Below are positions 2,538-14,118 of a DNA stretch of 14,316 nucleotides, one piece after another. Origin of the DNA: Acidobacteriota bacterium (GTDB lineage: Bacteria; Acidobacteriota; Blastocatellia; Pyrinomonadales; Pyrinomonadaceae); NCBI GenBank assembly GCA_029777145.1, contig JAKOSS010000583.1:1-14316 (forward strand). Reading direction: 5' to 3'. A program made the position numbers and the translations under genes. A model generated the notes under the pieces. It ran no database searches and was not told the DNA's origin. It saw nothing but the letters and a program-made list of their open reading frames with translations. Numbering within the stretch: position 1 is the first letter of the stretch; each line of letters starts with the position of its first letter.

Positions 2538-2876
2538 ATGATCAACCACCAACAATTCAACTGGGATTCGATCCCGTTCGAGAACGTCGGAGAGGGCATC
2601 GAGCGGCAGATGGTCGTCGGTGAGCACTTGATGATCTGCCGGTTGCGGTTCGCGCCGAACACTGTCACGCCCGCTCACGAACATCCGCACGAACAAATGA
2701 CGATCGTCGAAAAAGGCCGGGTCCTGTTCACGCTCGGCGACGACGAAAAAGTCGTCGGTCCGGGCGACGTCCTGCACTTCCCTTCGAATTTCTGGCACGG
2801 CGCGACGATGCTCGGCGAAGAAGTGATCCTGATCGACATATTTTCACCGATCCGCGAGGATTTCCTAAACAAATGA
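2538..2876 (+). CDS. kdgF: KdgF-like cupin (unsaturated uronate linearisation)
   Basis: A 112-residue single-domain cupin, probably cytoplasmic (no signal peptide). Cupin motif 1 is PAHEHPHEQMTIVEKG (residues 45-60) and motif 2 is PGDVLHFPSNFWHG (75-88). H47, H49, Q53 and H87 form the expected metal site with a Gln as in KdgF, and the ending IDIFSPIREDFL (99-110) is also KdgF-like. KdgF turns the 4,5-unsaturated galacturonate released by pectate lyases into the linear ketouronate. The first-gene position, with a 4-nt ATGA overlap with a pectate lyase gene, strongly supports this reading. The ribosome site is weak (AAGAAA). A generic cupin of another function cannot be fully excluded. Confidence 0.8.
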   Translation: MINHQQFNWDSIPFENVGEGIERQMVVGEHLMICRLRFAPNTVTPAHEHPHEQMTIVEKGRVLFTLGDDEKVVGPGDVLHFPSNFWHGATMLGEEVILIDIFSPIREDFLNK

Positions 2877-4369
2877 GACGCATAACGATCTTGATTCTGG
2901 CGCTTCTCCTGCCCGTCGCGGCGATCGCGCAGACAAAGCAGGAAGTACTCGACGCGATGAAGCAGGCGACCGCGTTCTTCTCGGCGAAAGCTTCGATCCG
3001 CGGCGGTTACGTGTGGAACATTTCCGAGGATTTCAAACGTCACTACGGCGAGATCCCGGCGCGCAATTCGCAGATCTGGGTGCAGTCGGCGACGCCATGG
3101 GTCGGCATGACGATGCTCGACGCGTATGAGGCGACCGGCGACAAGATCTATCTCGACGTCGCCGAGAAGGCCGGTCTCGCGCTCGCGTGGGGTCAACGTC
3201 CCGCGGGCGGCTGGCATTACATGATCGACTTTGAACCGAAAGGCGTCCAGGAGTGGTACAAGAACCACGCCTCGAAGTTCAAATGGGGCATGGAGGAACA
3301 GCGGTTCTTCAACGGCAACGCGACGTTCGATGACGGCAATTCACAATCGGCGACGCGGTTCTTGTTGAGACTTTATCTGGTCAAGAAGGATCCGCGGTTC
3401 AAAGCTCCGTTGCTGAAAGCGCTCGAATTCATGCTCAAGGCGCAATATCCGAACGGCGCCTGGCCGCAGCGATTTCCGCTCCATTACGATTTCGTCCACG
3501 ACGGATTTCCCGACTACACGCCGTATTACACGCTCAACGACGGCGCGATGGTGACGACGATCCAGGTTCTCGTCGATGCTTATGAGAACCTCGGCGACAA
3601 GCGCTATCTCGAATCGGCACGGCGCGCCGTCGATTTCTTCATCGCCGTTCAGGGACCGGAAGATCAGGCGGGATGGGCCGAGCAGTATCATCCCGACACG
3701 ATGCGGCCTGAAAAAGCTCGGACGCATGAGCCCGGCGGATTCGTGATCCGCGAAAGCGAGCAGGTGATCGAGACGCTCGAGATGTTTTACAAGATGACCG
3801 GCGACCGCCGCTATCTGCGTCCGATCCCCGGCTGTCTCGCCTGGTTCGACCGCGTCAACAAGGAAGCGCTCGAGCTCAAGCGCCCGGTTGCCCGCTATTA
3901 CGAACTCGGGACGAATCTCCCGATCTACGTTCTGCGGACGGACAAGACGAACGCGGAAGGCTACGGATTGTATCGGTGGAGCAACTCTGAATCACAAGGG
4001 AACATGCAGGGACTTTCGTCGTTCGCGAACAACGCCACGCAGGTCCGCGAAGTGGTGAACGTCAAACCTCTCCGGGCCGAATATGAACGCGTCGCGAAGC
4101 TCGATCCGAAAACGGCGCGGGCCGAATACGACAGCGAACGGCGCTGGAACGAGCGCTCAGGATTCGACGCCAACTGGCTTTCCGAGGCTTTGCGATCGAT
4201 CGATAGCCGCGGCGCCTGGGTTACGAACTGCCGCGTTCTCAAACTCGACGCGACGACGCCAAACGGCATGAACTCCGGTGATTTCGAGATGATCCGAGGT
4301 TACTCGACCGGGGTCTTCGTCCGAAACGTATCGATGATGACGGCTTTTCTTAAAGCGGAGCAAAAGTAA
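2873..4369 (+). CDS. Secreted pectate lyase, PL10-like
   Basis: A 498-residue protein with a signal peptide (1-19, cleavage at AIA/Q). It resembles polysaccharide lyase family 10 (Pec_lyase), alpha/alpha-toroid enzymes that cut polygalacturonate by beta-elimination. Recognisable blocks in order are FFNGNATFDDGNSQSATRFL (145-164), KAQYPNGAWPQRFPL (189-203), YTLNDGAMVTTIQVL (219-233), AGWAEQYHPDTMRPEKAR (266-283) and GGFVIRESEQVIETL (288-302). These parallel PL10 blocks (a TIDN.AT..Q.RFL pattern, YPNGGWPQ, the FNDDAMV region and A.HDPxT), but some are divergent, so substrate preference is uncertain and I could not map the catalytic Arg with confidence. The start ATG overlaps the cupin stop (ATGA), suggesting translational coupling. 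Confidence 0.8.
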   Translation: MRRITILILALLLPVAAIAQTKQEVLDAMKQATAFFSAKASIRGGYVWNISEDFKRHYGEIPARNSQIWVQSATPWVGMTMLDAYEATGDKIYLDVAEKAGLALAWGQRPAGGWHYMIDFEPKGVQEWYKNHASKFKWGMEEQRFFNGNATFDDGNSQSATRFLLRLYLVKKDPRFKAPLLKALEFMLKAQYPNGAWPQRFPLHYDFVHDGFPDYTPYYTLNDGAMVTTIQVLVDAYENLGDKRYLESARRAVDFFIAVQGPEDQAGWAEQYHPDTMRPEKARTHEPGGFVIRESEQVIETLEMFYKMTGDRRYLRPIPGCLAWFDRVNKEALELKRPVARYYELGTNLPIYVLRTDKTNAEGYGLYRWSNSESQGNMQGLSSFANNATQVREVVNVKPLRAEYERVAKLDPKTARAEYDSERRWNERSGFDANWLSEALRSIDSRGAWVTNCRVLKLDATTPNGMNSGDFEMIRGYSTGVFVRNVSMMTAFLKAEQK

Positions 4370-4389
4370 CGATCCGATCGATTCGAAAT

Positions 4390-4420
4390 AGCTGATAACG
4401 GAGAGCTGAAAGGTGATAGT
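4390..4420 (+). repeat. Short degenerate repeat before the LamG gene
   Basis: In the 77-nt spacer between the pectate lyase and the LamG gene, variants of AGCTGAWA occur three times in about 31 nt (AGCTGATA, AGCTGAAA, GGTGATAG). The pattern is short and imperfect and could be chance; no clear hairpin or terminator was seen. Confidence 0.3.
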
Positions 4421-4446
4421 TCGTTGACCGAATTTGTGCCAAAGGT

Positions 4447-5079
4447 ATGAAAATCGCAACCGCCGTCATTCTCGTGCTTTTTCTTGCCGTTGCCGCGCTC
4501 GCGCAATCGGGTGTGACATGGAAGTTCGACAACCTAAAAGCGATCGGCGGAAATCCGGTCGAAGTTTTGGGTGCGCCCAAAATAGTCAAAAAGGCGGTCG
4601 AGTTCGACGGCGCGGCGGACGGGATCTTGCTCGACACGAACCCGATCGAGGGCCTTTCCGAATTCACGATCGAGGCGATGTTTCGTCCGGACGGCGGCAG
4701 CAAAGAGCAGCGTTGGTTTCACATCCAGCAGTCGGACGCGGACAATCGCGTGCTGCTTGAGATCCGGGTCGACGGCTCCGATTGGTTTCTCGATACGTTC
4801 ATCAAATCGGGCGACAATCGTCTGACGCATTACGCGGAAAAATTCCGGCACCCGCTGGGCAAGTGGTACCGCGTCGCGCTCGTCTTCGATGGCAAGGAAA
4901 TGCGGCATTATGTCGACGGCAAACTCGAACTCGCGGGGGCTTTGACGATCGCGCCGTTCGGGAAGGGACGGACTTCGCTCGGCGTCCGGCAAAACAAGGT
5001 TCATTGGTTCAAAGGCGCGATCAAAAAGGTCCGGATCACCGGCAAGGCACTCGCGCCGAAGGAGTTCATGAAGAAATGA
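4447..5079 (+). CDS. Secreted LamG/concanavalin A-like jellyroll protein
   Basis: A 210-residue protein with a signal peptide (1-19, cleavage at ALA/Q). The rest is one LamG-type jellyroll: AVEFDGAADGILLDTNP (50-66), the strand FTIEAMFRPDG, LEIRVDGSDWFLD, GKWYRVALVFDGKEMRHYVDG and the closing FKGAIKKVRITGKALAPKEF. These are the usual LamG landmarks (W-Y-VALV-DG--YVDG, then a final strand with I/VRI). It has no catalytic module, so it may bind carbohydrate or hold other enzymes, or it could be a small divergent lyase/hydrolase of the same fold. ATG 4447 has an AAAGG only one nucleotide away, an unusually tight ribosome site. It sits in the pectin operon and its stop overlaps the esterase start (ATGA). 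Confidence 0.75.
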   Translation: MKIATAVILVLFLAVAALAQSGVTWKFDNLKAIGGNPVEVLGAPKIVKKAVEFDGAADGILLDTNPIEGLSEFTIEAMFRPDGGSKEQRWFHIQQSDADNRVLLEIRVDGSDWFLDTFIKSGDNRLTHYAEKFRHPLGKWYRVALVFDGKEMRHYVDGKLELAGALTIAPFGKGRTSLGVRQNKVHWFKGAIKKVRITGKALAPKEFMKK

Positions 5080-6644
5080 TCGATCGACGGACGTTCGTCA
5101 AAAGTGCGCTTGCAGGCGCCGCGATCGCGGCTATCTCGGATCGTTCCTGGGCCCAGACCGATTCGCCGGTCGCGACGACAAAGTACGGAAAAGTCCGCGG
5201 ATACGCCGACGACGGCGTCAACTGTTTTTTGGGCGTCCGATACGGCGCCGATACGTCGGCATATCGTTTTCAGGCTCCGAAACCTCCCCGGCCGTGGGAC
5301 GGCATCGCCGATGCACAGGATTACGGCGCGTCGTCGCCGCAGCCGTCGCGCGGCGGATCGAACGTCAGCGAGGACTGCCTTTTCCTGAACGTTTTCACGC
5401 CGAAATTGCGCGACGGCGGCAAGCGCCCGGTGATGTTCTACATCCACGGCGGCGCGTACGCAAACGGTTCCGGATCAAGCCCGCTTTACGACGGCGTCAG
5501 GCTTTGCAATCGCGGCAATGTCGTCGTCGTTTCGATCAACCATCGGCTGAACGCCTTCGGCTATCTCTATCTCGCGCGGTTCGGAGGATCTGAATTCGCG
5601 GACTCCGGAAACGCGGGGCAACTCGACATCATCCTCGCGCTCAAATGGGTTCGCGAAAATATCGCCGAGTTCGGCGGCGACCCGAACAACATCATGGTTT
5701 TCGGGCAATCGGGCGGCGGAGCGAAGATCGCGACGTTGATGGCAATGCCGGCGGCGGCCGGACTGTTCCAGCGCGCCGCCACGATGAGCGGCCAGCAGGT
5801 GACGGCATGCGGACCGTGGAACGGTACTCTTCGGGCGAAGGCGATCATCGACGCCCTGAATCTGAAAGATGTACAGGAGATCCGGTCGACCCCATTCCAG
5901 AAGATCGTCGAGGTTCTGGGGACGAAGGATCCGGTCCTTTCGTTCGGCGGCGTGAACTTCGCGCCGGCGCTCGATGAACGCAATTTGCTCCGTCATCCGT
6001 TCTATCCCGACGCCCCGGCACAGTCGGCGAAGATCCCGATGATCATCGGCAACACCCACGACGAGACGCGCGCGTTCCTCGGCGGCGATCCGACGAACTT
6101 CACCGTCACCTGGGAGCAGCTGCCCGATAAACTGATCCCGAACATGCGTGTCGATATCAAGCCCGAAGAGGTGATCGAGAAGTACCGGAAACTGTATCCG
6201 AAACTCAGCGCCAGCGATCTTCTGTTCAAGATCACGACGGCGTCGAGGAGCTGGCGCGGCGCGATCATCGAAGCCGAAGAACGCGCCAAATCCGGATCGC
6301 CGGCGTACGCGTACCAACTCGACTGGGCCTCGACGCGCGAGGGCGGAAAATTCGGCGCGCCGCATGCGTCGGACATTCAACTCGTCTTCGACAATCTCGG
6401 AAAACCCGGTTCGACCGCCGAAGGTCCGACCTCGCAGCACATGGCCGACATCATGAGCGACACCTTCATCGCGTTTGCCCGCAAGGGCGATCCGAACAAC
6501 AGATCGATCCCGGTTTGGAAGCCGTACACGATGGCAAAACGAGAAACGATGGTCTTTGATGTTCCGCCGCGTCTTGAGAACGACCCGCGCGGCGAGGAAC
6601 GGAAGATCTTCGAGAAAGTCCCTTATGTCCAGGCCGGAAGCTGA
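5076..6644 (+). CDS. Type-B carboxylesterase with Tat-like signal
   Basis: A 522-residue alpha/beta hydrolase. The N-terminus MIDRRTFVKSALAG has a twin-arginine motif followed by a hydrophobic stretch and SWA/Q cleavage, so export by Tat is likely. Type-B motifs are SEDCLFLNVFTP (98-109), the oxyanion HGG (124-126), the nucleophile elbow GQSGGG with S212, the acid E330 in NTHDETRAFL, and H430 in GAPHASDIQLVF. The triad is therefore complete. In this operon a likely role is removing acyl or methyl esters from pectin or associated plant esters, but type-B esterases are promiscuous and the substrate is inference. The start ATG overlaps the LamG stop by 4 nt; a longer open frame from 4782 is only the LamG gene read in another frame. 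The stop is directly adjacent to the convergent yggU stop. Confidence 0.88.
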   Translation: MIDRRTFVKSALAGAAIAAISDRSWAQTDSPVATTKYGKVRGYADDGVNCFLGVRYGADTSAYRFQAPKPPRPWDGIADAQDYGASSPQPSRGGSNVSEDCLFLNVFTPKLRDGGKRPVMFYIHGGAYANGSGSSPLYDGVRLCNRGNVVVVSINHRLNAFGYLYLARFGGSEFADSGNAGQLDIILALKWVRENIAEFGGDPNNIMVFGQSGGGAKIATLMAMPAAAGLFQRAATMSGQQVTACGPWNGTLRAKAIIDALNLKDVQEIRSTPFQKIVEVLGTKDPVLSFGGVNFAPALDERNLLRHPFYPDAPAQSAKIPMIIGNTHDETRAFLGGDPTNFTVTWEQLPDKLIPNMRVDIKPEEVIEKYRKLYPKLSASDLLFKITTASRSWRGAIIEAEERAKSGSPAYAYQLDWASTREGGKFGAPHASDIQLVFDNLGKPGSTAEGPTSQHMADIMSDTFIAFARKGDPNNRSIPVWKPYTMAKRETMVFDVPPRLENDPRGEERKIFEKVPYVQAGS

Positions 6645-8522: not shown

Positions 8523-9458
8523 TTACGGTTTCGAGAAATCGAACTCCTTGTAATTGATGTGCTTGATATATTCGCCGTTCTCATAGGCGATGTCCACGTC
8601 AAGTTTCAGCGTCCAGTTTCCCTTCGCAACCCTGATCTCGTCGTAGGGAACAAACACCGTGACATCCTCGTAAACCGCCGGATCGTAGCCCGGCTTGATG
8701 TCGAACGAGACCTCGAAATCGCCGTCGGCGTTCGAATAGCCGGCGCTTGAACTTGTCAGGAACTCGTCGCTCTGATTTCGGATCCGAACGGTCATTTTCG
8801 CGTCGACGCCTTTCAGTCCGGTGACTTCGAAATTGACATGAACCACCATTCCGCGACGCCCGTTGCGCGTCTGATTGTAGTCGATCCAAACGCGGTTCGT
8901 ATCTTCATTCGTATCGGTCGTCGGCGCGGCGCTGGTGTATTGGAACTCCTTGTACGTCAGATGCTGGATCAAACCTCCGGCCTTGTAAATGACATCGATG
9001 TCCATTCTCAGCTTCCAGTCTCCGGCACTCAGATCGAGTTCGTCGTAAGGCATGAAGATCGAGTAATCGCTGTAGTCGGCCGGATCGTAGGCGGGCTTGA
9101 TCTCGCGGTAAGCCGCGACTTCGCCCGAGGAGCTGTTGAATTTTCCGTTCTTGTCCTTCAACCGATCTCCCGCAGCCGTCTCGAAATAGATGGCGAGATA
9201 TGCGTCGACACCTTTCATCGCAAGCGCCGTGAACTTCACGTGAATCCGCATGCCCTTCTGACCGCTCTCGGTGATATCGTAATCGACCCAGACATCCTTG
9301 AATTCGGCGGCAGGCTTTCGCACCTGAACCGGTTCGCCGGCGTTCTGGGCCAGCGCCTGTTCGGCGGCGAAATGCGTTATCATCCCAACAAAGACTATCG
9401 ACAGAAAGGAAAGCATCGCCTTCCCAAGACTACCTAAAAAGAACTTATTCGTGTTCAA
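8523..9458 (-). CDS. Secreted protein with two tandem copies of an unrecognised domain
   Basis: A 311-residue protein with a signal peptide (about 1-37, ending QALA/Q). The mature part is an internal duplication: residues 56-174 and 190-308 align end to end without gaps, with about 45 of 119 identical by hand count. Shared landmarks are VW(V/I)DY, KGVDA, IKP.YDP, (F)(M/V)PYDE, G(D/N)W.L and YKEF. Alternating strand patterns suggest a beta-sandwich, but I do not recognise the family. I chose a TTG start at 9458 because GGAGGA (9465-9470) lies 6 nt upstream and the resulting N-terminus MNTNKFFLG is a normal signal-peptide start. Alternatives are GTG 9488 (adds 10 residues) and ATG 9416 (shorter signal). 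It is monocistronic and divergent from rsmG. Confidence 0.8.
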   Translation of the reverse strand: MNTNKFFLGSLGKAMLSFLSIVFVGMITHFAAEQALAQNAGEPVQVRKPAAEFKDVWVDYDITESGQKGMRIHVKFTALAMKGVDAYLAIYFETAAGDRLKDKNGKFNSSSGEVAAYREIKPAYDPADYSDYSIFMPYDELDLSAGDWKLRMDIDVIYKAGGLIQHLTYKEFQYTSAAPTTDTNEDTNRVWIDYNQTRNGRRGMVVHVNFEVTGLKGVDAKMTVRIRNQSDEFLTSSSAGYSNADGDFEVSFDIKPGYDPAVYEDVTVFVPYDEIRVAKGNWTLKLDVDIAYENGEYIKHINYKEFDFSKP

Positions 9459-9464
9459 GTTTGA

Positions 9465-9470
9465 TCCTCC
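9465..9470 (-). promoter_or_regulatory. Shine-Dalgarno site deciding a TTG start
   Basis: Minus strand GGAGGA, the strongest ribosome site near this gene, has 6 nt between it and TTG at 9458. The upstream GTG (9488) has only a GGAG 10 nt away, and the downstream ATG (9416) has none. Confidence 0.6.
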
Positions 9471-9532
9471 GGATTGTGTCGGGATCACCGCGGAAACGCT
9501 CCGTCGCCTGGTCCCGAAATCATCGAAAATTC

Positions 9533-12383: not shown

Positions 12384-12413
12384 TTTTCAAACATGTTTTG
12401 GATTGTTTATAAT
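12384..12413 (+). promoter_or_regulatory. Promoter of the pseudokinase gene
   Basis: A perfect TATAAT at 12408-12413 with TTTTCA at 12384-12389 (4 of 6 to the -35 consensus), 18-nt spacer. Transcription would start near 12420, downstream of the possible starts at 12403 and 12412, which supports a later start codon. Confidence 0.6.
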
Positions 12414-12453: not shown

Positions 12454-14118
12454 ATGCTTTCAACAAACCAAACACTCCAAAATCGATACCGTATTGTCGC
12501 TCAGCTCGGCCAGATCGACTCTGGTTTGGGATATGAGGCCTACGACAGTGCCCTCGGAAAAACCGTTATGCTCAAAGAAACTCTTGGGGACCCCAACGCC
12601 CCGTCTCCCGTTCTTCCCGCCACCGTTCGCCATCAGTCTCTCCTTTGCGTCACCGACTCTTTCGACGAATCGAACAGGCGATATCTCGTCACTGACCATG
12701 TCGACGGCAAGACACTCGCCGAGATTCTCGAAACCAACAAATGCGCGTTCCCGCTCAAAGACGTCGGTTTGTGGGCGGACGGCCTTCTCGACGCGCTGAA
12801 TCATCTGCATGCGCAGATCCCGGCGATCATTCATTCGAACATCAAGCCGGAAAACATAAAACTGAGCGCGGGCGGCAACGTCAAGCTCTTCGTTTTCGGC
12901 GGTACGGAAAACGGGCGCGACGGCGTCGACGGCGACGGAATGTCGTTCGACGCAAATGTCCTCGGATATCTTCCGATAGAACAGATCTGGCTCGGACTCG
13001 ACGTCGGTTCGCGCAAAGTGATCCGCAGCGGCTACGACGAGCGTTCGGCAGAGATCCTCGAGCAACCGCTCGATGTTCAGAGCGACATTTATTCGATCGG
13101 CGCCACGCTCTACCACCTCGTGACCGGTCGTGTTCCGGCCGATGCGCTGACCCGTTCGATCGATCTGCTCGAAGGCAAGGCCGACCCGCTTGTTCCGGCC
13201 TCGACGATAAATCCGGCCGTCAGCCAGGAGCTCTCCGATGTCTTGATGCGGGCGATGCAGATCAAACGCGAGGATCGATACGGATCGGCCTCGATCATGC
13301 GCCAGGTGCTGCGATCGGCCTTCTCGAAATTGCAAAGTGACGAACGTCGGGAGTCGGTCCCGGTCGTCGATTTCGGTGAGGACGACGCTGTTCTCGAGAT
13401 CCCGGCGACGATCCCGGCGCGACCGGTTGTTCGGCCCGGAATGCAATCGGGCGAATCGAAGCAACTCGAGATCATCAAGCGTCAGCTTCGCGAGGCTGAA
13501 GATCGCCGCCGTGAAGCCGAACGTCGGGCGGCCGAAGCTGAACAGCGCCTTCTTGAACGCGAAACGATCGATTTCAAGCTTGCCGACGTGCCTGTTGAGA
13601 TCGTCGAATCGGCACCCGTCGAGATCAAGACGGAGGTTGTCCGGCCCGAACCCGAACTTTATGAACCGGCAACGCACTTTCCGGCGGCCGACGAAGATGC
13701 AGAGCCTGCGTATTTCGGCGGCGCGGACGACGAAGCGCCCTCGGGCGGCCGTTCGATGGCGAAGGTCGCCGGCGTTGCGGCCGCGCTCGTGATTCTCGCG
13801 GCGGGAGGATTCGGGATCTGGAGGATGACGTCCGACACCGGATCCGCCGAGGTCAAGATCGAATCGCCGGCGGCGACCGTACGACCGGTTGAATCAAAGC
13901 CGCTCGCGGAAAGTCCGGTAGTTTCGACATCGTCAACGGAAACGCCGTCACCAACCGCCGAGACAGTCGCGGAAACGGAACCGGCTCAGGAAACCCAATC
14001 ACGGCCGCGGATGACGCCGACGCCGGCGCAGCAAGCGAAGAAACAACCGACGCCGACACCGAAGTCGGCGCCGCAACAGAAAAAGGTCACGCTCGATGAC
14101 CTCCTCAAAGATAATTAA
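12454..14118 (+). CDS. Membrane-anchored Ser/Thr kinase-like protein, probable pseudokinase
   Basis: A 554-residue protein with start ATG 12454 (GGAG 10 nt upstream; domain begins at LQNRYRIV). Residues about 10-290 are a bacterial Hanks-type kinase fold: VAIK-like K41 in VMLKE, IKPEN (N134), GYLPIEQ, SDIYSIGATLYHLVTGR. Catalytic features are degraded: HRD is HSN (127-129, Asp to Asn), DFG is VFG (147-149, Asp to Val), and the glycine loop is altered (LGQIDSGLGYEAY). It should therefore lack normal phosphotransfer, although nucleotide binding may remain. After a linker come a charged coiled coil (337-372), one membrane helix (438-456) and a Pro/Thr-rich extracytoplasmic tail ending KKVTLDDLLKDN. 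Likely a signalling scaffold or sensor. Alternative starts are 12403 (TTG), 12412 and 12427 (ATG). Confidence 0.85.
   Translation: MLSTNQTLQNRYRIVAQLGQIDSGLGYEAYDSALGKTVMLKETLGDPNAPSPVLPATVRHQSLLCVTDSFDESNRRYLVTDHVDGKTLAEILETNKCAFPLKDVGLWADGLLDALNHLHAQIPAIIHSNIKPENIKLSAGGNVKLFVFGGTENGRDGVDGDGMSFDANVLGYLPIEQIWLGLDVGSRKVIRSGYDERSAEILEQPLDVQSDIYSIGATLYHLVTGRVPADALTRSIDLLEGKADPLVPASTINPAVSQELSDVLMRAMQIKREDRYGSASIMRQVLRSAFSKLQSDERRESVPVVDFGEDDAVLEIPATIPARPVVRPGMQSGESKQLEIIKRQLREAEDRRREAERRAAEAEQRLLERETIDFKLADVPVEIVESAPVEIKTEVVRPEPELYEPATHFPAADEDAEPAYFGGADDEAPSGGRSMAKVAGVAAALVILAAGGFGIWRMTSDTGSAEVKIESPAATVRPVESKPLAESPVVSTSSTETPSPTAETVAETEPAQETQSRPRMTPTPAQQAKKQPTPTPKSAPQQKKVTLDDLLKDN

What the first reader, a model, noticed from the sequence alone, without database searches (positions are those of the whole stretch)
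12454..14118. Kinase-fold membrane protein missing both catalytic aspartates
HRD reads HSN (bases 12832-12840) and DFG reads VFG (the Val codon GTT is at 12892-12894), while the ATP-anchoring Lys, the IKPEN Asn, the PE of the activation segment and the F-helix Asp remain. The reading frame, membrane helix and tail are intact, so this is a maintained gene and not decay. Bacterial pseudokinases are much less studied than active Hanks kinases.
Basis: partly seen in the sequence, partly recalled or inferred. Interest (0 to 1): 0.7.

Follow-up and report, generated by a model that had tools for sequence, protein, structure and literature searches.

The report
Acidobacterial membrane pseudokinase with TonB-like partner
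A bacterium carries a membrane protein built like a signalling enzyme whose catalytic site has been lost, and its relatives have kept it that way next to a secreted partner gene, so it probably works as a scaffold and not as an enzyme.

Summary
The ORF at 12454-14118 (+) encodes a PknB-like kinase fold, one transmembrane helix and a Pro-rich tail, with HSN at HRD and VFG at DFG. In the 120 listed homologues (own protein included) none has both catalytic Asp, 118 lack the DFG Asp and 118 keep a C-terminal motif like VTLDDLLKDN. The lineage splits from intact-motif paralogues at 100/99; kinase-domain dN/dS against one relative is 0.05. In all 26 pseudokinase loci with at least 1200 nt downstream, a secreted protein follows: a new N-terminal domain, TPRs and TonB_C. 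In 16 canonical paralogue loci TonB_C is absent there. In five genomes both operon types stand side by side, which suggests operon duplication. The window shows only the first 61 residues of the partner. None of seven pseudokinase families in a 2025 review fits. Best reading: a non-catalytic membrane-spanning scaffold working with its periplasmic partner. The function is inferred, not shown.

The parts
12454..14118 (+). pseudokinase gene, 554 aa (in-frame upstream starts at 12403 TTG and 12412 ATG are possible; P0005-P0008 and P0010-P0011 start at the equivalent of 12454)
12454..13329 (+). kinase-fold domain, residues 1-292
   Evidence: Pfam PF00069; AF2 pLDDT mostly above 90 except around residues 150-165; Foldseek best hits Stk1/PknB
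12574..12576 (+). beta3 Lys41, retained
12580..12633 (+). short link where alphaC and its Glu are missing
   Evidence: 18 aa against 33 in most relatives; no alphaC in the model
12832..12840 (+). HSN in place of HRD
12844..12855 (+). KPEN with Asn134, retained
   Evidence: Asn in 116 of 120
12892..12900 (+). VFG in place of DFG
   Evidence: Asp absent in 118 of 120
12973..12984 (+). PIEQ (mostly PLEQ in relatives) at the APE position
12985..13071 (+). subfamily insertion between alphaEF and alphaF, shared with the intact-motif paralogues
13084..13086 (+). F-helix Asp211
   Evidence: 120 of 120
13444..13587 (+). long helix, perhaps coiled coil, residues 331-378
13759..13830 (+). transmembrane helix, residues 436-459
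   Evidence: helix and hydrophobic sequence; no membrane predictor was run
13831..14115 (+). Pro/Thr-rich tail, inferred periplasmic
   Evidence: sequence; mostly pLDDT under 50 in the model
14086..14115 (+). C-terminal VTLDDLLKDN motif
   Evidence: motif in 118 of 120, the two exceptions being short pieces; residues 531-554 without an amino-acid change against L001
14133..14316 (+). start of the partner gene (signal peptide plus N-terminal domain), cut by the window end; 14-nt gap
   Evidence: full-length orthologue L001:9678-10760

Best explanation
It is a member of an old family of membrane pseudokinases, so far seen in one class of Acidobacteriota, that descends from an intact-motif Hanks-type kinase operon by duplication. 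Shown by sequence: the kinase fold was kept while the magnesium-binding Asp, usually the P+1 Thr, often the alphaC Glu and often the catalytic Asp were lost. The membrane helix and a near-invariant C-terminal peptide were kept. In every locus with enough sequence the gene is followed by one for a secreted N-domain+TPR+TonB_C protein. Inferred: the protein does not transfer phosphate. Its cytoplasmic kinase fold is a protein-binding and perhaps nucleotide-sensing platform. Its helix and Pro-rich tail cross the inner membrane and hold the soluble periplasmic partner through the C-terminal peptide, so that a cytoplasmic state (binding, or phosphorylation by one of the many intact kinases in the cell) is coupled to an envelope function of the TonB_C protein.
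For: 0 of 120 listed homologues with both Asp, 118 without DFG Asp, tail motif in 118 of 120, F-helix Asp in 120 of 120 (own protein included). Canonical paralogues (picked as having both Asp): 17 of 17 with beta3 Lys, alphaC Glu and P+1 Thr; pseudokinases keep P+1 Thr in 3 of 32 loci and 5 of 110 alignment rows, alphaC Glu in 4 of 32 and 37 of 110 (the two sets overlap a little). Split of the two groups 100/99. dN/dS 0.052 in the kinase domain, none of 24 tail residues changed (one pair of sequences). N-domain and TonB_C after 26 of 26 pseudokinases with at least 1200 nt downstream; N-domain after 14 of 16 canonical paralogues (several weak, in L130 only 1182 nt away) and TonB_C after 0 of 16. 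41 contig lengths shared between the two homologue lists against a mean of 0.6 (most 5) in a jittered control. Pfam TonB_C in 7 of 7 pseudokinase partners scanned and 0 of 3 canonical partners. Tandem canonical and pseudo operons in G002, G054, G055, G056, G057.
Against: 44 of 120 keep the HRD Asp and 2 keep the DFG Asp; beta3 Lys or Arg is kept in 115 of 120 and Asn134 in 116, so nucleotide binding or an unusual activity is not excluded. 37 of 110 rows keep the alphaC Glu. No direct evidence of binding between the pseudokinase and its partner. The tail has only weak resemblance to parts of the partner. Periplasmic location of the tail is inferred from charge and gene context only. Only 32 of 162 genomes of the class showed the family at the thresholds used.
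Confidence: 0.6

Rival explanations
1. Allosteric partner or decoy of its intact-motif sister kinase: the pseudokinase dimerises with it and tunes its activity.
For: Sister operons stand in tandem in five genomes; same fold, same family-specific insertion.
Against: A canonical kinase of the subfamily scoring over 500 bits was found in only 7 of the 32 genomes with a pseudokinase (G001, G002, G054-G058; the 500-bit line is mine). The search scored 8 candidates per genome, genomes may be incomplete, and a further hit in G099 (C212, 380 bits) was not read. It could still act on another kinase: 35 and 52 Pkinase matches in G001 and G002, some being pieces of one gene.
Confidence: 0.2
2. Atypical enzyme: it still binds ATP and transfers phosphate, AMP or another group by a changed mechanism, as SelO and SidJ do.
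For: beta3 Lys/Arg, Lys131 and Asn134 are mostly conserved; published precedents in PMC12599244 section 4.
Against: The residue at the DFG position varies (V 47, A 42, I 13, T 8, D 2, others 8 of 120); alphaC is deleted in the window's clade. Whether another acidic residue took over was not tested.
Confidence: 0.15
3. Decaying gene or sequencing error.
For: Catalytic residues missing.
Against: Open frame in the relatives read, dN/dS 0.05, same letters in other records, conserved operon.
Confidence: 0.02

Closest known systems
MviN/MurJ pseudokinase domain (ActPs3) of Actinobacteria
   Same: membrane-linked bacterial pseudokinase with a scaffold role (PMC12599244, section 8 read)
   Different: ActPs3 loses the beta3 Lys (VALT) and has a deletion in the activation loop; here Lys is kept, an insertion is present before alphaF, and the downstream gene encodes a TonB_C protein
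EssB/YukC of type VII secretion
   Same: single-pass membrane pseudokinase with a non-catalytic structural role (part 1 of section 4 read)
   Different: found in Firmicutes as part of T7SSb; no T7SS gene among the window ORFs scanned with Pfam
ActPs1, ActPs2, GLW, CP1, DYD and DLHK families
   Same: bacterial STK fold with catalytic loss
   Different: each has a defining replacement or domain not seen here (see membership test)
PknB/Stk1-type Hanks kinases
   Same: fold; best PDB matches 9ymt and 4eqm
   Different: no PASTA domain found, catalytic Asp pair lost
TonB
   Same: inner-membrane anchor, Pro-rich spacer and TonB_C (TonB architecture recalled, not from a call)
   Different: here anchor and TonB_C lie on two proteins, and their contact is not shown

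Membership tests
Protein kinase fold superfamily (PF00069) | profile match over the curated cut-off and kinase fold | tested here: met
   73.1 against 31.7 bits; model and Foldseek
Active Hanks-type kinase | HRD Asp and DFG Asp | tested here: not met
   HSN, VFG
Active Hanks-type kinase | alphaC Glu paired to beta3 Lys | tested here: not met
   alphaC deleted
PknB/Stk1 PASTA kinase (NF033483) | score over the curated cut-off | tested here: not met
   118.5 against 450 bits
ActPs3 (MviN) | degraded VAIK, deletion in activation loop | tested here: not met
   Lys41 kept; insertion after PIEQ; feature
ActPs2 | beta3 Lys to Arg, 250-aa activation-loop extension | tested here: not met
   Lys41 kept, 554 aa in all
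ActPs1 | substitutions in all three motifs including beta3 Lys | tested here: not met
   Lys41 kept
GLW | GLW for HRD, Leu/Trp for beta3 Lys | tested here: not met
   HSN, Lys41
CP1 | no TM, linked COG3899 domain | tested here: not met
   hydrophobic helix present, only kinase families in Pfam
DYD | beta3 Arg and DYD motif | tested here: not met
   Lys41, VFG
DLHK | no TM, HRD Asp kept, beta3 Lys lost | tested here: not met
   hydrophobic helix present, HSN, Lys41
EssB/YukC | part of a T7SSb system | tested here: inconclusive
   no such gene in the window ORFs scanned with Pfam, but the window's genome is not held
The family described here | DFG Asp lost, V[TS]x[DE]D-type C-terminus, downstream N-domain+TPR+TonB_C gene | tested here: inconclusive
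   first two features met; of the partner the window holds only the first 61 residues, so TPR and TonB_C are seen in the orthologue L001

The most novel reading that the evidence does not exclude
A split TonB-like device driven or gated by a dead kinase: the pseudokinase supplies the inner-membrane helix, Pro-rich spacer and a C-terminal docking peptide, the soluble partner supplies the TonB_C head, and the kinase fold in the cytoplasm senses nucleotide or phosphorylation. It arose when a Hanks-kinase operon was duplicated, one kinase copy lost catalysis, and only its partner had (gained or kept) a TonB_C domain.
Probability: 0.15. Interest if true: 0.85.

Novelty: new variant of a known kind. 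Interest (0 to 1): 0.58.

Why it matters
Bacterial pseudokinases have few known functions. The 2025 review PMC12599244 lists seven families and its main text does not mention Acidobacteriota. This family comes with a fixed operon partner, a near-invariant terminal peptide that can be tested by pull-down, and intact-motif sister operons in some of the same genomes. That makes the question 'what does a kinase fold do after catalysis is lost' directly testable in one gene pair.

Tried and rejected
Decay or sequencing error: rejected. That HSN/VFG as such are conserved: rejected, only the loss is. That all 120 homologues lack DFG Asp, my first count by eye (also in notebook entry 1): corrected to 118; P0112 and P0115 keep it but lack the HRD Asp. 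That the C-terminal peptide copies the first helix of the partner's N-domain: the best profile match falls there in 64 of 120 partners, mean score 6.3 against 2.6 for shuffled partners, but 22 for the tails themselves, and one shuffled partner reached 12, so I do not rely on it. GltJ similarity of the tail: 20 bits against a cut-off of 450, not pursued. A known structure for the partner's N-domain: no PDB sequence match at E up to 1. Papers on acidobacterial pseudokinases: none recognised in the listings (one search showed 12 of 5,394 papers). The 42-family atlas (reference 72 of PMC12599244) did not come up, so I cannot say whether its families cover this one.

Limits: the window's own genome is not held. 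Genomes of the genome search are unnamed; only a few candidates per genome were scored (8; 3). The partner profiles were built from 17 partners taken from these same loci, so 26 of 26 is partly by construction; the Pfam TonB_C matches are independent. The partner in L094 is split into two frames around an unknown base and was only described. Rows dropped: the careful tree left out three long outgroup rows and used a model without mixture, and it warned that two long rows, L103 and L114, were joined; seven pseudokinase loci (window included) and one canonical locus with under 1200 nt downstream were left out of the partner count. Parts given to calls: A1 36 of 120 listed homologues; A2 the window and 109 of the 119 others; A3 L001 and 65 of 120 partner homologues; A4 9 of 17 canonical paralogues; contig comparison 119 of 120 pseudokinase rows, one having no contig. 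One homologue and one partner carry the source name Actinomycetota (P0082, P0170); I take these for misbinned contigs, not tested. L003-L005 (24-25% identity, other phyla or unnamed) were not examined.

Full report
What is there. The ORF at 12454-14118 (+) is intact, 554 aa. Its first 292 residues match Pkinase (E 3e-20) and are modelled as a kinase fold, mostly with pLDDT above 90. After them come a long helix (331-378), a hydrophobic helix (436-459) and a disordered Pro/Thr-rich tail that ends in a short helix (547-553). The nearest solved structures are S. aureus Stk1/PknB and M. tuberculosis PknB. HRD reads HSN and DFG reads VFG; Lys41, Asn134 and Asp211 remain. The window's clade has also lost alphaC: 18 residues between Lys41 and the next strand against 33 in most relatives, and no alphaC in the model.

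It is a family. A search of 5.8 billion proteins scored 7995 candidates and gave 1319 matches, of which the best 120 were listed, the window's own protein among them. In these 120: both Asp 0, neither 74, HRD Asp only 44, DFG Asp only 2 (P0112, P0115); beta3 Lys 101 and Arg 14; Asn134 116; F-helix Asp 120; C-terminal motif 118, the other two being 415 and 305 aa pieces; V, A, I or T at the DFG position in 110. Several members carry the source name Pyrinomonadaceae, a family of class Blastocatellia. The close relative L001 is an Acidobacteriota MAG with the same gene order around the gene.

Selection. Between the window and L001, dS is 1.03 and dN 0.053 over the kinase domain (ratio 0.052). Residues 293-330 have 0.27, 379-435 have 0.24 and the membrane helix 0.34. 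In residues 531-554 there are eight synonymous differences and no amino-acid change. So the fold and the last residues are what is most strictly kept.

Origin. In the genomes of L001 and L002 other kinases of the same subfamily have GGMG, HRD and DFG. They share the insertion between alphaEF and alphaF. The 17 canonical paralogues read (defined by having both Asp) all keep beta3 Lys, alphaC Glu and the P+1 Thr; among 32 pseudokinase loci alphaC Glu is kept in 4, P+1 Thr in 3, and beta3 Lys/Arg in 28; among 110 alignment rows 37, 5 and 107. A tree of 92 kinase domains, built without the two motif regions, separates pseudokinases (with P0112 and P0115) from canonical paralogues at 100/99; the quick mixture-model tree of 95 rows gives 99 for the same group. 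The DFG state changes twice on the quick tree and the HRD state nine times. The simplest reading is one early loss of the DFG Asp and a return, or a retention, in the small branch of P0112 and P0115.

Operon. The next gene encodes a secreted protein with an N-terminal domain of about 65 residues (four helices; no Pfam match, e.g. L085:1694-2827), TPRs and TonB_C. In the window its first 61 residues are visible from 14133. Of 33 pseudokinase loci (window included), 26 have at least 1200 nt downstream, and all 26 have N-domain and TonB_C there. Of 17 canonical paralogues 16 have that much; 14 have the N-domain (several weakly, in L130 only 1182 nt away) and none TonB_C. The profiles came partly from these loci, but Pfam finds TonB_C in the seven pseudokinase partners that I scanned (L001; L045, L088, L089, L092, L102, L103) and not in the three canonical partners (L044, L084, L085). 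In another line of evidence, 41 contig lengths occur in both homologue lists, against a mean of 0.6 and at most 5 for jittered lengths; equal length stands in for the same contig. In G002, G054, G055, G056 and G057 a canonical and a pseudokinase operon stand in tandem, the canonical one first in four of the six places and second in two (L086, L045; in L045 only the C-terminal part of the pseudokinase is on the contig). This fits duplication of a kinase plus N-domain-protein operon.

Distribution. In the 162 genomes of the class of L001's genome, 37 had a match at E 1e-95; pseudokinases were read in 32 of these (loci, read) and only canonical paralogues in the other five. In a sample of 396 genomes of the phylum, 14 had a match at E 1e-90, all of them handles already met in the class search. 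Few candidates per genome were scored, so absences are soft, and other phyla were not searched this way. A canonical kinase of the subfamily over 500 bits was seen in 7 of the 32, so the pseudokinase does not seem to depend on it.

How it most likely works. Shown by sequence: loss of groups needed for ordinary Mg-ATP phosphotransfer; conservation of fold, hydrophobic helix, terminal peptide and partner gene. Inferred: kinase domain in the cytoplasm and tail in the periplasm (Lys before the helix, partner with a signal peptide). Inferred: the tail peptide docks the partner, and the pair links a cytoplasmic cue to an envelope process in which the TonB_C domain acts. The retained Lys and Asn leave nucleotide binding open.

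Comparison. PMC12599244 (abstract, outline, part 1 of section 4, sections 6, 7, 8, 10, 12, 13, 14 and searched passages read) lists seven bacterial pseudokinase families. The words Acidobacter-, Blastocatell- and Pyrinomonad- do not occur in its main text. None of the seven definitions fits. The review describes MviN and EssB/YukC as membrane proteins whose pseudokinase domain has a scaffold or recruiting role; this family works, if I am right, like them but is not shown to be a member of either. Paper searches brought up no work on acidobacterial pseudokinases that I recognised from the listings. The underlying 42-family atlas was not found in the library.

Verdict. A real, conserved pseudokinase family with a fixed periplasmic partner, not described in anything I could read: a new variant of a known kind.

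Noticed in passing
window 8526-9488 (-): Secreted protein with two repeats (VWVDYDITESGQKGMRIHV...); similar repeats follow the N-domain in the partner of the canonical kinase of G055 (L085:1694-2827). No Pfam match.
   Followed up: partly
L133:6065-7891 and relatives: Many canonical sister kinases end in a Cys-pair tail (about NCIFTDDC) instead of VTLDDLLKDN, while two (in L084 and L087) end in VSVDDIINDTE; meaning unknown.
   Followed up: no
L088:3298-5193, L092:6121-7986: A conserved, probably secreted protein of about 620 aa lies directly upstream of the pseudokinase in several genomes and beside the canonical operon in L085; L088's has no Pfam match.
   Followed up: partly
window 2873-6641 (+): Pectate-lyase-like, laminin-G-like and carboxylesterase genes in a row (Pfam), perhaps for plant polysaccharide use.
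   Followed up: no
L086:2537-3604 (-): An FGE-sulfatase domain gene lies just beyond the canonical kinase of G054.
   Followed up: no
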